Origin: Flavobacterium sp. ALD4
Lineage (GTDB): Bacteria; Bacteroidota; Bacteroidia; Flavobacteriales; Flavobacteriaceae
DNA length: 64,000 nucleotides
NCBI RefSeq assembly: GCF_002836475.1
Contig: NZ_PJBJ01000028.1
Coordinates: 186,001-250,000 of the forward strand
Reading direction: 5' to 3'
Part shown: one piece after another, positions 41,600-45,854 of the stretch
How positions within the stretch are numbered: position 1 is the first letter of the stretch
Layout: each line of letters starts with the position of its first letter
Made by a program: the position numbers and the translations under genes
The notes under the pieces: generated by a model
The model's input: only the letters and a program-made list of their open reading frames with translations
The model's database searches: none
Told to the model about the DNA's origin: nothing

Positions 41600-41998
41600 A
41601 TGAATGTAACATTTAACATCGTCCAAAACACAAAAATCAATACTGACGTATTTACTTTTAAAAACCCAGAAACGGTTACGTATCCAGTAGCTCCGTTAAT
41701 TTCCGCAAAATTATTCACACCGGTCGGAGGTGTTTTAACCCTTAAGATTAGAGCCACATTGTACATCAACTCAGATGATGCTGCTCCTCCCACTATAAAT
41801 ATCCCTACAGAATACGGAACGATTTTAACATTGATTTACAGTTATGATTTCTCCGAGGTAACCCCAGAAAGCTGTGATGTATGGTACGTAGAGGTAGACT
41901 ACAGTTCAGAAACTGTGGGTAAGATAAATAAAATCGAATCTTTCATGAAAGACGTAGATCCTGAGACATCTAGGGGTACATCAACAGTACTTCCATAA
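41600..41998 (+). CDS. 132-residue protein of unknown function, first gene of a kinase/LytTR operon
   Basis: I do not recognise this protein. It starts [20 protein letters not shown], has no signal peptide, no membrane segment and a single cysteine ([13 protein letters not shown]). Composition is beta-strand-rich with many Thr, Val and Asp, and the tail [10 protein letters not shown] looks disordered. It ends eight bases before a TPR sensor kinase gene, which in turn overlaps a LytTR regulator gene, so the three are almost certainly one operon. A cytosolic partner or modulator of the signalling pair is an inference from position only. Confidence 0.78.
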
Positions 41999-42006
41999 AC
42001 CATAAT

Positions 42007-43749
42007 ATGAAATTAAAAATATTTTTTTTTCTTTTTTCCTTTTTTCTATTAAATAAACAACTGGTTTTCTCACAACAGGTGAGCAAAATTGGGCTTGAAG
42101 AAAAAATTATAAAACAAAAAGCTATTGATTTTAAAGTAGAAGCTGATTTTATAAAATCGCAATCTTTTTATTTAAAAAAAGATTGGGATTCTACGTTGGT
42201 CTATTCGATGAAACAACTGAGTAAAAAAAACAGTAAAGCCCTCTTAGATTATTGTCATTATTTTAGAGGAGTTAGCTTTTACAATAAGAAACTATACAAA
42301 GAGGCTATAAAAGAATTGTTTTTTGTGTCAGACTCATTTGAGTTGATAGCACTAAAAAATTATTATCTAGGAGCTTTATTTTTAGAACTTAAAGAATATC
42401 AAAAAGCATTATATTATTTCAAAATATCCGAAAAGATATTTATTGATTTAGGAGAGTCAAATAATTTGGAAAATGTGTATACGGGAATTGGTTCAGTGTA
42501 CATTTATTTAAAGCAATTAGATAAAGCAGAAGTTTATTTGCTTAAAAATTTAAACCTAAGCAAAAAAACACAGAATAATGATAAAATTTGTTCCTCTTAT
42601 ACTAATCTAGCTAATTTGTATTATGAACAATACAAAGACGATTTAGCTTTTTTTTATTTCAAAAAAGCCTATGAATTATCTAAATCAATCAAAAACAATA
42701 ATAAGAGAGAAATCGTTTCTCGTAATATGGCTGTATTCGAAGAAAACAGAGGTGACTTTAAAAAAGCTTTAGGGTATAGAAAAGAATCCGAGCAATGGAA
42801 AGATTCACTAAATGACCAAAATAAAGTTTGGGCAATTGCTGAAGTTGAGAAGAAATTTGCCGTAAAGCAAAAGCAAAAGGAAGTAAATGTACTGCAAACG
42901 GAGAATAAACTAAAAGAAGCACAAAGGAACAGTTTGTTGTACTCCTCGGTTTTGTTGTTATTGTTACTGGGAGCAAGTGTTTATTTTTACATGCAAAAAA
43001 CAAAACAAAATAAAATTATACTAGCCCAAAAAGAGGAATTAGATGAACTGAATGCCACCAAAGATAAATTATTCTCCATTGTTAGTCATGATTTGCGTTC
43101 GTCGGTAAATGCCTTAAAAACCAGTAATGCTAAATTACAGGAAAGTCTTGTGACTAAAGATTTTTCGGCTTTAGATCAGCTGCTCCATAATAATAGTGAG
43201 ATAGCAAATGGTACCTATAATTTATTAGACAATCTATTAAATTGGGCTTTATTGCAAACCAAACAAGCTTATTTTTATATTGATTCCTTACATTTGTTAT
43301 CAATCATCAATCAGGTAGCGTATAATTATAAACCATTATTATTAAACAAAAATATCAGTTTTGAGAATAGGGTAGCTGCGTCGGTTTTTGTGTCGGCAGA
43401 CCAAGATTCACTAAAAATAATTATTAGGAATGTTCTAGACAATGCGGTTAAATTTTCTAAAGAAAATGGCGCAATTGCTATTTATACCCGTGCTTCTGAG
43501 GACGGTTTTTGCCATTTAATTATAGAAGATACTGGATCCGGAATGAGCGAAGCAAAGCGACAAGAACTCCTTAAAGAAACGGTGTTGCTTTCTAAAAAAG
43601 GAAGTGATGAAAACATCGGAACCGGATTAGGAATGCAGTTGTGCAAAAGTTTGGTACATAAAAATGGGGGTACATTAAGTATTGAAAGTCAAGAAGGAAT
43701 TGGTACTAAAATAATTATTAGGGTGCTTAAAATTGAAAATAATGGATAA
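42007..43749 (+). CDS. TPR-containing sensor histidine kinase
   Basis: A 580-residue kinase. A signal peptide or first membrane segment ([19 protein letters not shown]) is followed by about five TPR-like repeats to near residue 270 in the periplasm (for example [20 protein letters not shown] and [21 protein letters not shown]). A membrane helix [21 protein letters not shown] leads to a coiled coil and HisKA with the phospho-accepting histidine near 360 in [13 protein letters not shown]. The HATPase domain has [22 protein letters not shown] and [12 protein letters not shown]. No receiver domain. It overlaps the LytTR regulator gene by eight bases. The stimulus is unknown; TPRs suggest a protein or peptide ligand. 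Confidence 0.93.
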
Positions 43750-44494
43750 TATAAACGTACTAATTATTGAAGATACGCCAGCGGAAAGTGACGCACTGTT
43801 AAAAGTTTTAAAGGCTAATAATTATACTGTAGTTGGTATAGCAACTACTTATACCCAAGCCTTAACGCTGTTTTACAATAGTGAAATTAAGATTGATATT
43901 GTGGTGATCGATATTTTTTTAGACGGGAAGCCTGATGGGATTACTTTTGCAGAGACCATTAATATTGTACCGAATAAATCAAAACCTTTTGTTTTTTTAT
44001 CTAGTTCTAAGGACAGACAAATTTTTGAAAGAGCCAAACTTACACAACCATTTAGTTTTTTATTAAAACCGTTTAATGAATTAGAGATTTTATACGCAAT
44101 AGAGATGGCAGTGGAGAAGTTTTACGCCCAAACTAATGTTTTTTTGAGTGAAGACAAAGACACCGTAATAAGTGCAGAATACCTCTTTGTTAAAAAAAAC
44201 AAATCTTTAAAGAAAGTGCTAATTGAGGACATTATTTATATTGAAGTAGAGGAGCGTTATTGTAATATTATAACCGAAAAGGAAAAATTTGTTATCATGA
44301 TGTCGCTAACTAAAATGCTGGAGCTTCTTGATCCATCGAAGTTCAGTCGAACGCATAGGAACTATGTGGTAAACTCGGGTAAGATAGAGGAAATAATATT
44401 TAATGATAATTTGATTATTCTAGAAGGGAATCATAAAGTCATGATCAGCGATACTTATAAAGATCTTGTAAATCAGTTTCGTATTATAAAGTAA
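43742..44494 (+). CDS. LytTR family response regulator
   Basis: A 250-residue transcription factor. The receiver starts [20 protein letters not shown], with the phospho-accepting aspartate about 57 in [13 protein letters not shown] and the conserved lysine in [10 protein letters not shown]. The LytTR DNA-binding domain covers roughly 145-245, with [30 protein letters not shown] and [18 protein letters not shown]. The ATG at 43742 lies inside the end of the kinase gene; a TTG three codons upstream is possible. It is the cognate partner of the TPR kinase by overlap. Two 21-bp-offset direct repeats at 45.6 kb are a candidate target. Confidence 0.94.
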
Positions 44495-44552: not shown

Positions 44553-45158
44553 AGGATCTTTATATATTCTAACTCAACTTTGTCGTATATGCTATTTCTT
44601 AAATTATGGCAATCCTATTTATTATTTGAACCAATACATAATCTGTAGTATCATTTTTATTATTGTCTTAGCTGACGAAAAATTTTGCAGTACTTATTTA
44701 TTCTTCCAATTTTCCTGTTTAAATAATCTGTTAAATTGATCAAACGAATGACGTTGGGTTATCAAATACTTTAGATTGACTATCTGCAATTTCTCTTTAA
44801 GATATTTTTTTAAAAATAAGTTAATACCGTAAATAGCTTATCTCATGACTAAGAATCGGTCGCTTGTGTCATTATATATTTCATAGTTTTTATAATAAGT
44901 TAGTTTTGGGATATATTACAAATATAGATTTCCGTAAACTTTAATATGGGAGAATGAAATAGAGTTTTGAAAGATAAAAAGTATGATTGATTGAATGTTA
45001 CTAACTAGTTCAAATGTCGGTCTGTCTAATCTTTTCTACTAACATATTATCAGATATAAAGAGGACTCGACCCGAAGGCAATAAACGAAGTAGGGCTTTA
45101 ATTTTTTTTATTTAAATACTTATTGGAGTAACAGAAGTCTATAAAAATAACTAATAAT
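44553..45158. other. 600-base spacer without a supportable gene
   Basis: AT-rich, no frame of note. Near 45061-45080 the minus strand reads GGGTCGAGTCCTC, resembling a tRNA T-arm, but no cloverleaf can be built around it. Confidence 0.5.
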
Positions 45159-45431
45159 ATGAAAAATAATAGACTACCCTTAATTTTAGTCGCCATTTGC
45201 AGCATTTTTGTTTTTCTTTGCTTTTCATGTAAACAAGATAGGTATATTAATTCTGTACAAATCACTCCTCAGGCATTTCCAAGTCCAGCAACAACAGGAA
45301 GGCAATTTCGAAAACGCACCAAAGGAGTAAAGATCCCTATTCCTGTAGATTCTTCGATAGAGGAAGACACCACAATAATAAGTAATGGCATCGACAATCT
45401 TAGCGGGTTTACTGATTTTAAGGTTTACTGA
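45159..45431 (+). CDS. Small lipoprotein of unknown function (90 aa)
   Basis: A 90-residue protein. The leader PLILVAICSIFVFLCFSC ends in a lipobox with the cysteine at 24, so it should be lipidated. The mature part is short, proline/threonine-rich and basic (FRKRTKGVKIPIPVDS), then acidic, with no recognisable domain. It lies between the LytTR operon and a 47-residue membrane protein gene and may belong to the same accessory block. Function unknown. Confidence 0.7.
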   Translation: MKNNRLPLILVAICSIFVFLCFSCKQDRYINSVQITPQAFPSPATTGRQFRKRTKGVKIPIPVDSSIEEDTTIISNGIDNLSGFTDFKVY

Positions 45432-45624: not shown

Positions 45625-45659
45625 TATGACATGTTTTTAGCGTCCTATGACATGTTTTT
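45625..45659. promoter_or_regulatory. Two 14-bp direct repeats offset by 21 bp (candidate LytTR site)
   Basis: TATGACATGTTTTT at 45625-45638 and again, identical, at 45646-45659. The offset of 21 bases is that of known LytTR-family operators. The second copy ends 22 bases before the putative -7 element at 45682, overlapping the expected -33 position. Confidence 0.65.
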
Positions 45660-45681
45660 TATCAGAGTGATTATTCCAATG

Positions 45682-45689
45682 TAATTTTA
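45682..45689 (+). promoter_or_regulatory. Putative -7 element of the 47-residue ORF
   Basis: TAATTTTA differs from TAnnTTTG in the last base. It is 21 bases before the ATG at 45711 and 22 bases after the second direct repeat. Confidence 0.4.
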
Positions 45690-45710
45690 AAATATTAAAA
45701 TCACTTTGAA

Positions 45711-45854
45711 ATGAAAAAATTAACCATGAGTTGGAATATCATCTATAAATCATTAGGAGAAATTAGTGTTTTCAGAAAGTTTGGTGTTTTAAGTCTTGTT
45801 ATTTTACTTCTAACTTATTTTATTTTATCGATTCAGTTTATCTTTTTTTATTAA
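45711..45854 (+). CDS. Small single-helix membrane protein (47 aa)
   Basis: Starts MKKLTMSWNIIYKSLGEISV and ends in one hydrophobic segment (VLSLVILLLTYFILSIQFIFF) followed by Y and TAA. A cytosolic amphipathic head with a single membrane helix is predicted. No family recognised. Support comes from its position directly downstream of a pair of 14-bp direct repeats and a near-consensus -7 element; it is too short to be certain on coding evidence alone. Possibly the output of the nearby LytTR system, which is inference. Confidence 0.5.
   Translation: MKKLTMSWNIIYKSLGEISVFRKFGVLSLVILLLTYFILSIQFIFFY

What the first reader, a model, noticed from the sequence alone, without database searches (positions are those of the whole stretch)
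45625..45854. 21-bp-offset direct repeats and a promoter in front of an unannotated 47-residue membrane protein, next to a LytTR system
Seen: TATGACATGTTTTT twice, offset exactly 21 bases, the second copy ending 22 bases before TAATTTTA (near -7 consensus), then an ATG 21 bases later opening a single-helix ORF. Known: LytTR regulators (for example AgrA, BtsR, YpdB) bind pairs of direct repeats one every 21-22 bases next to the promoter. A LytTR regulator gene lies about 1.1 kb upstream with its kinase. Inference: the regulator activates this small membrane protein gene, making a compact TPR-kinase/LytTR/small-membrane-protein signalling unit.
Basis: partly seen in the sequence, partly recalled or inferred. 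Interest (0 to 1): 0.72.

Follow-up and report, generated by a model that had tools for sequence, protein, structure and literature searches.

The report
LytTR-switched tiny membrane protein in Flavobacterium
In a Flavobacterium genome, a pair of DNA repeats in front of a gene for a 47-residue predicted membrane protein is likely the docking site of a neighbouring LytTR regulator, because the same repeat-plus-promoter layout recurs beside this regulator in dozens of relatives, most often in front of another small predicted membrane protein.

Summary
The regulator has orthologs (62% identity or more) in 106 of 398 genus genomes. Of 111 regulator loci, 65 carry two YATGNCAT half-sites at exactly 21 bp with a -7 box exactly 36 bp after the second, within 500 nt downstream; the other offset-spacing combinations tested give 0-1. 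Genome-wide, 57 of 106 regulator-positive genomes have the exact layout, against 6 of 292 others. In 46 of the 65 the first gene is an unrelated 2-TM small protein, found in 47 of 338 genomes, all regulator-positive. The 47-aa ORF lies downstream of the regulator in all four genomes with a clear match, and in a fifth accepted partly for its place; it resembles small membrane proteins beside a NarL-type system. Binding, activation and feedback on the kinase are predicted, not shown. New variant of a known kind.

The parts
42007..43749 (+). Sensor kinase, 580 aa: predicted signal sequence, TPRs, one TM segment near residues 308-330, HATPase_c
   Evidence: Pfam TPR and HATPase_c; hydropathy; signal sequence by eye; its end overlaps the regulator start
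43742..44494 (+). LytTR response regulator, 250 aa
   Evidence: Pfam Response_reg and LytTR; orthologs at 62% identity or more in 106 of 398 genus genomes
44844..44908 (+). Second, weaker operator-promoter: half-sites at 44844 and 44865 (11/14), -7 box TAGTTTTG at 44901
   Evidence: scan; same layout in G253/L245 at 13/14
45159..45431 (+). Decayed remnant of a lipoprotein gene (487 aa with a CxxCH motif in relative G253)
   Evidence: comparison with L015/L245 by eye
45625..45659 (+). Predicted LytTR operator: half-sites TATGACAT at 45625 and 45646, offset 21
   Evidence: conserved layout in relatives
45682..45689 (+). -7 promoter element TAATTTTA, exactly 36 bp after the start of the second half-site; predicted transcription start about 45694
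   Evidence: spacing conserved in 65 of 111 loci; consensus TANNTTTG with T at -12 in PMC6847099 (passages)
45711..45854 (+). 47-aa predicted single-span inner-membrane protein, basic N-terminus, hydrophobic segment residues 26-44
   Evidence: ORF; hydropathy; family in 5 genomes; dN 0.28 / dS 0.60 against G253; profile match from family B, E 4e-8

Best explanation
The repeats at 45625-45659 are likely the operator of the LytTR response regulator encoded 1.1 kb upstream, which is predicted to switch on the -7 promoter at 45682 and so make a 47-residue predicted inner-membrane protein that would act back on the neighbouring TPR sensor kinase. Shown: the repeats, the promoter spacing, the conservation of this layout beside the regulator, and its tracking of the regulator across genomes. 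Inferred: the kinase phosphorylates the regulator (overlapping genes); the regulator binds the half-sites, which on the -7 numbering start near -69 and -48, as a dimer on one face of the DNA; binding recruits RNA polymerase at a promoter without a clear -33 element (by eye); a transcript with a leader of about 17 nt is translated. Least certain is the protein's job: I commit to feedback on the kinase in the membrane, as MgrB does for PhoQ, because unrelated small membrane proteins fill the same slot in most relatives that have the operator beside the regulator.
For: Offset and spacing: of 111 regulator loci with more than 400 nt downstream, 65 have half-sites at offset 21 (11/14 or better) with TANNTTT exactly 36 bp after the second; all other combinations tested (offsets 20-22, spacings 30-42) give 0-1. 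The reverse strand gives 0 of 111, 20 shuffles give 0-1, and the stretch up to 3.2 kb upstream of the regulator gives 1 of 111. Tracking: the exact layout is in 57 of 106 genomes with the ortholog and 6 of 292 without (Fisher 2e-32, not corrected for relatedness); the reversed-pattern control gave 2 places against 78. Leaving out genomes whose only match lies inside a long open frame, it is 55 of 106 against 2 of 292; one of those 2, G336, is an operator beside the pseudouridine synthase gene with no kinase or regulator match in the 3.9-kb stretch. Slot: the first gene is a 69-83 aa 2-TM protein in 46 of 65; that family is in 47 of 338 genomes, all 47 regulator-positive. The 47-aa family: 4 of 4 clear matches, and G308 accepted partly for its place, lie downstream of the regulator; 4 of the 5 have the operator at 12/14 or better. 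In the window the lipoprotein gene has decayed while the ORF and its 14/14 operator are intact.
Against: 46 of 111 loci lack a strict site within 500 nt of the regulator. The 47-aa family is in only 5 genomes; G308 was accepted at E 4.6e-4 because of its place, and its operator is poor (9/14). In G024 the predicted leader is about 117 nt, and G253 has an imperfect -7 box. The regulon in relatives includes soluble proteins, so the small protein may be just one output. No evidence bears directly on feedback. Offsets 16 and 26 are also raised at a low threshold (34 and 54 of 111), because the half-site resembles itself shifted by 5. The aligned sites were selected by the half-sites and -7 box, so only the other positions are independent evidence. 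dN/dS of about 0.5 on 47 codons is weak evidence of coding.
Confidence: 0.72

Rival explanations
1. The operator and regulator are as proposed, but the 47-aa protein is an output of the response (an envelope or membrane-stress protein) and does not touch the kinase.
For: Other genes behind the same operator look like outputs: MVL lectin, Collar, DUF1842, DUF2589, trypsin-like (the DUF2589 and trypsin-like sites in L238 are weak, 10/14).
Against: Small membrane proteins are the commonest neighbour (46 of 65), and the 2-TM family was found only with this regulator (47 of 47 genomes among 338).
Confidence: 0.4
2. Another DNA-binding protein uses the repeats; their place near the LytTR gene is incidental.
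For: No binding was tested; about half of regulator-positive genomes lack the exact layout. Four regulator-positive genomes have an exact match in front of a TetR-like gene (TetR by eye), which that regulator itself might use.
Against: 57 of 106 against 6 of 292 genomes, fixed place behind the regulator in 65 of 111 loci, and the two-turn direct-repeat form described for LytTR domains (PMC11347149 passages).
Confidence: 0.1
3. The regulator represses this promoter.
For: CoxC, a LytTR-domain protein, represses when its repeats overlap the -35 box (PMC11347149 passages).
Against: [quoted passage not shown]
Confidence: 0.12
4. The promoter drives a non-coding RNA and the ORF is not translated.
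For: Short ORF, no known family, modest dN/dS.
Against: Length and C-terminal motif kept in five genomes at 26-60% pairwise identity and a profile match to another small-protein family.
Confidence: 0.06

Closest known systems
LytTR-domain two-component regulators (AgrA, BtsR/YpdB type; names recalled) and the LytTR-domain repressor CoxC
   Same: Receiver plus LytTR domains; direct repeats two helical turns apart near the promoter, as described in PMC11347149 (passages)
   Different: Half-site YATGNCAT and a -7 (TANNTTT) promoter; output includes small membrane proteins; below the cut-off of every NCBIfam model it matched
MgrB, feedback inhibitor of PhoQ
   Same: A 47-aa membrane protein in the regulon of a two-component system, acting on its kinase (start of the abstract of PMC8404706); here predicted
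   Different: No Pfam match for our ORF; partner kinase is a TPR kinase; feedback untested
LytTR Regulatory Systems (HdrRM, BrsRM)
   Same: LytTR protein associated with a membrane protein (PMC6193735 listing)
   Different: There the membrane protein is inhibitory and the LytTR protein is described as single-domain or so associated (passage of PMC11347149); here there is a receiver domain, a kinase and a separate promoter
FimS sensor kinase of Porphyromonas
   Same: Best NCBIfam match of the kinase over residues 123-568
   Different: 193 bits against a cut-off of 600

Membership tests
LytTR response regulator | Receiver and LytTR DNA-binding domains | tested here: met
   Pfam PF00072 47.0 bits and PF04397 72.8 bits, both over cut-off
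LytTR response regulator | Operator of direct repeats about 9 bp long spaced 10-13 bp | tested here: met
   Period 21 bp; majority core TTCATGACA in both repeats over 65 sites (YATGNCAT was the selection criterion, the leading TT was not); definition from PMC11347149 passage
LytTR response regulator | Binds that operator | not testable with these tools
   Needs a binding assay
LytTR Regulatory System (LRS) | LytTR protein without receiver, paired with a membrane inhibitor | tested here: not met
   Receiver domain and kinase present; definition partly recalled
MgrB | Sequence family | tested here: not met
   No Pfam family at E 0.1 for the 47-aa ORF; that Pfam holds an MgrB model is recalled
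MgrB-like mechanism | Small single-span protein in the regulon of its own two-component system | tested here: inconclusive
   Operator and adjacency fit; regulation unproven
MgrB-like mechanism | Binds and modulates the sensor kinase | not testable with these tools
   Needs two-hybrid or deletion tests
Bacteroidota sigma-A promoter | -7 box TANNTTTG | tested here: met
   TAATTTTA here, one base off the last position; last base A in 80% and G in 20% of the 65 aligned sites (TANNTTT was the selection criterion); consensus from PMC6847099 passages
FimS | NCBIfam equivalog cut-off | tested here: not met
   193.4 of 600 bits

The most novel reading that the evidence does not exclude
Flavobacteria keep an exchangeable small-membrane-protein slot on their two-component systems: one single-span family serves both a NarL-type and a LytTR-type system, and an unrelated 2-TM family takes the same operator-driven place, each acting back on its sensor kinase. 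This would be a widespread, unrecognised Bacteroidota counterpart of MgrB with swappable parts.
Probability: 0.3. Interest if true: 0.82.

Novelty: new variant of a known kind. Interest (0 to 1): 0.6.

Why it matters
It gives an operator code, with fixed spacing to the promoter, for an apparently uncharacterised LytTR regulator of a large genus, so its regulon can be read from sequence and tested. It also points to small membrane proteins tied to two-component systems in Bacteroidota (no Pfam, NCBIfam or PHROG family for the 47-aa and 2-TM proteins), where I found no described case. That last statement rests on searches of the open-licence library only.

Tried and rejected
Closed three-part unit: rejected, because the operator fronts many gene types. 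Autoregulation of the kinase-regulator operon: 1 of 111 loci has a site in the stretch up to 3.2 kb upstream of the regulator, so not supported. Phage origin of the small proteins: no PHROG for the 47-aa or 2-TM protein; the family B member had only weak hits (E 0.02-0.03, unknown function). Collar gene in the window's own genome: one exists but no site of the layout (9/14 or better) within 1.5 kb. The first ORF listing read minus-strand loci in the wrong orientation; it was redone and nothing rests. The similarity of the two single-span families could have been a generic membrane effect; the same comparison against the 2-TM family gave probability 5.7 against 98.2, so I keep it as likely homology. 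A published F. johnsoniae evolution experiment (PMC10197871, passages) reports mutations in a LytTR gene and in the adjacently numbered histidine-kinase gene; whether it is this pair could not be verified and I do not use it.

Full report
THE OBSERVATION. TATGACATGTTTTT at 45625 and 45646 is the only exact 14-mer repeated at distance 15-30 in the 64-kb window, leaving out 14-mers of two or fewer letters. In the whole genome (3,365,212 bases, 30 contigs) no other place matches the paired repeat with up to 3 mismatches. With half-sites, T-run and -7 box together, one site has 1 mismatch and three others have 3, against one reversed-pattern control match. The kinase has TPRs and HATPase_c, and the regulator has receiver and LytTR domains. 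The ORF has no Pfam, NCBIfam or PHROG match.

THE OPERATOR IN RELATIVES. The regulator has a match at E 1e-40 or better in 108 of 398 genomes of the genus; two of these (G224 at 37%, G258 at 44% identity) are not orthologs, which leaves 106 at 62% or more. I fetched 111 stretches around these matches; with the window, and two regulator copies in one stretch, that is 113 loci from 106 genomes, of which 111 have more than 400 nt downstream. Within 500 nt downstream, 65 of 111 have two YATGNCAT half-sites (11 of 14 positions or better) at offset 21 with TANNTTT exactly 36 bp after the second. The other combinations of offsets 20-22 and spacings 30-42 give 0 or 1. Without the -7 requirement and at the low threshold, offsets 16 and 26 are also raised (34 and 54 of 111), because the half-site resembles itself shifted by five; at 13 of 14 only offset 21 stands out (32, against 1 for offset 26 and 0 for the other offsets from 15 to 27). 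The reverse strand gives 0 of 111, 20 shuffles 0-1, and the stretch up to 3.2 kb upstream of the regulator, kinase gene included, 1 of 111. The aligned sites read TTCATGACA, an A-rich stretch, TTCATGACATTTT, then TACTTTTA. The half-sites and the -7 box were the selection criteria; the TT before each half-site, the A-rich stretch and the T-run after the second were not, and are conserved too. With the -7 numbering of PMC6847099 (T at -12; passages), the half-sites start near -69 and -48.

REGULATOR AND OPERATOR GO TOGETHER. The exact layout YATGNCA-N14-YATGNCA-N29-TANNTTTR was found at 78 places in 63 of 398 genomes; the reversed pattern was found at 2 places. By genome this is 57 of 106 with the ortholog and 6 of 292 without (Fisher 2e-32, which ignores relatedness). 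Some of these matches are chance: seven of the 14 that I checked last lie inside open frames of 150 codons or more (G121, G224, two in G328, G085, G239, G388). Leaving out genomes with no other match gives 55 of 106 against 2 of 292. Of the two, G370 has the match in front of a 116-aa ORF. G336 has it beside the pseudouridine synthase gene that borders the regulator locus in many of the fetched relatives, with no kinase or regulator match in its 3.9-kb stretch and no gene behind the operator and no regulator match at E 1e-40 in the genome. I read it as a relic. The window's own second site (44844, 11/14) fronts the remnant of a lipoprotein gene; in the nearest relative, G253 (a protein record of identical sequence is named Flavobacterium frigoris), that gene is 487 aa and its operator scores 13/14.

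WHAT STANDS BEHIND THE OPERATOR. In 46 of the 65 near sites the first gene is a 69-83 aa protein with two hydrophobic segments and a median leader of 24 nt (45 by pattern plus L207 by eye). That family occurs in 47 of 338 genomes searched; all 47 are regulator-positive, and 47 of its 48 matches lie on the regulator's contig (the other, in G267, is at a contig end). The other near sites: 6 cystatin-like (by eye, no Pfam match), 4 MVL lectin, 4 of an unnamed family, 2 lipoprotein (one is the window's remnant), 1 47-aa ORF, and 2 others. Away from the regulator, 30 of 44 exact matches were picked by eye as operator-like before I looked at the genes; the next gene is Collar-like at 12, LuxR-like at 5, DUF1842-like at 4, of the unnamed family at 2, other at 5, and none at 2 (blastp at E 1e-5 against one member of each class; that member checked against Pfam, where the LuxR-like match is below the cut-off and the unnamed family has none). 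The 14 left out at first: seven inside long frames, four in front of a TetR-like gene in regulator-positive genomes, three in front of other ORFs. 46 of 111 loci have no strict near site. Some of these have a weaker one, some have a distal one, and some have neither.

THE 47-AA ORF. A profile of three members finds four clear matches in 398 genomes (the window, G411, G024, G253; E 5e-13 or better) and, at E 4.6e-4, G308, which I accept because it also lies downstream of the regulator. All five lie 0.3-2.6 kb downstream of the regulator on the same strand. Operator scores are 14, 13, 12, 13 and 9 of 14 for the window, G253, G024, G411 and G308. G253 has TAATTTC in place of the -7 box, and G024 has a predicted leader of about 117 nt. 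Window against G253: 60% amino-acid identity, dN 0.28, dS 0.60; differences at codon positions 1/2/3 are 13/9/15, so support for coding is modest. Among 5.8 billion proteins the profile of five finds four clusters: the window's own, F. frigoris, Flavobacterium sp. NG2, and a metagenome protein with 85% identity. The N-terminus is basic and the last 22 residues are hydrophobic, so an N-in single span is predicted (and by eye).

A RELATED FAMILY BESIDE ANOTHER TWO-COMPONENT SYSTEM. Weaker matches of the same profile are 41-50 aa single-span ORFs. 31 of 33 of their loci (some seen in two searches) have both a NarL-type regulator gene and a gene for a protein of about 420 aa as neighbours; one such regulator checked against Pfam has receiver and GerE domains, and the 420-aa protein has no match. 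A profile of 11 of them, with no member of the first family, picks out only the window's ORF in the window's genome, E 4e-8. The two profiles align with probability 98.2; the 2-TM family as a control gives 5.7. So the window's ORF is likely a member of this wider family that has come under LytTR control. The wider family has 63 clusters in the protein search, mostly nameless or hypothetical.

HOW IT PROBABLY WORKS. The kinase gene overlaps the regulator gene, so they are likely partners. The operator lies upstream of where a -33 element would be and at a fixed distance from the -7 box, as expected for activation. Most LytTR-type regulators bind upstream of -35 and activate, whereas CoxC, overlapping -35, is a repressor (PMC11347149 passages). 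The product would be a small inner-membrane protein. I commit to feedback on the kinase because of the repeated use of unrelated small membrane proteins in this slot and because MgrB, also 47 aa, does this for PhoQ (start of the abstract of PMC8404706). The rival, that it is simply an output, is about as likely. My confidence of 0.72 is for the regulatory part; for feedback alone I would say about 0.4.

KNOWN AND NEW. LytTR operators of this form are known, and small proteins that tune kinases are known from enteric bacteria. I found no description of this regulator, its operator or these small proteins in the library searched, which holds open-licence papers only. Hence: a new variant of a known kind.

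Noticed in passing
L003-L009, L011, L127-L152 without L148 (31 of 33 loci): 41-50 aa single-span ORFs beside a NarL-type regulator gene and a gene for a protein of about 420 aa; ACGTA-type tandem repeats stand upstream of several of them (by eye). Related to the window's ORF.
   Followed up: partly
45159-45431: Lipoprotein gene remnant: resembles the start and a later part of the 487-aa protein of G253 (L245) but lacks what lies between and after; its operator at 44844 persists.
   Followed up: partly
L330 (G336), minus strand: Operator-promoter relic beside the pseudouridine synthase gene, with no kinase or regulator match in the 3.9-kb stretch.
   Followed up: partly
L286, L296, L304, L312-L317, L322, L323, L325 (Collar) and others: The same operator in front of Collar (PF07484), DUF1842 and LuxR-like genes elsewhere in relatives' genomes: a wider regulon, many of its proteins without an obvious signal peptide by eye.
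   Followed up: partly
L339, L340, L345, L348 (G418, G396, G367, G101): An exact match of the layout 43 nt before a TetR-like gene in four regulator-positive genomes; regulon member or that gene's own operator.
   Followed up: no
L190 (G254), second regulator copy: Downstream of a 65%-identical regulator copy there are two pairs of CACAACAT repeats at offset 21, each with a -7 box: possible change of operator specificity after duplication.
   Followed up: no
41600-41998: 132-aa ORF in front of the kinase gene with no Pfam or NCBIfam match.
   Followed up: no
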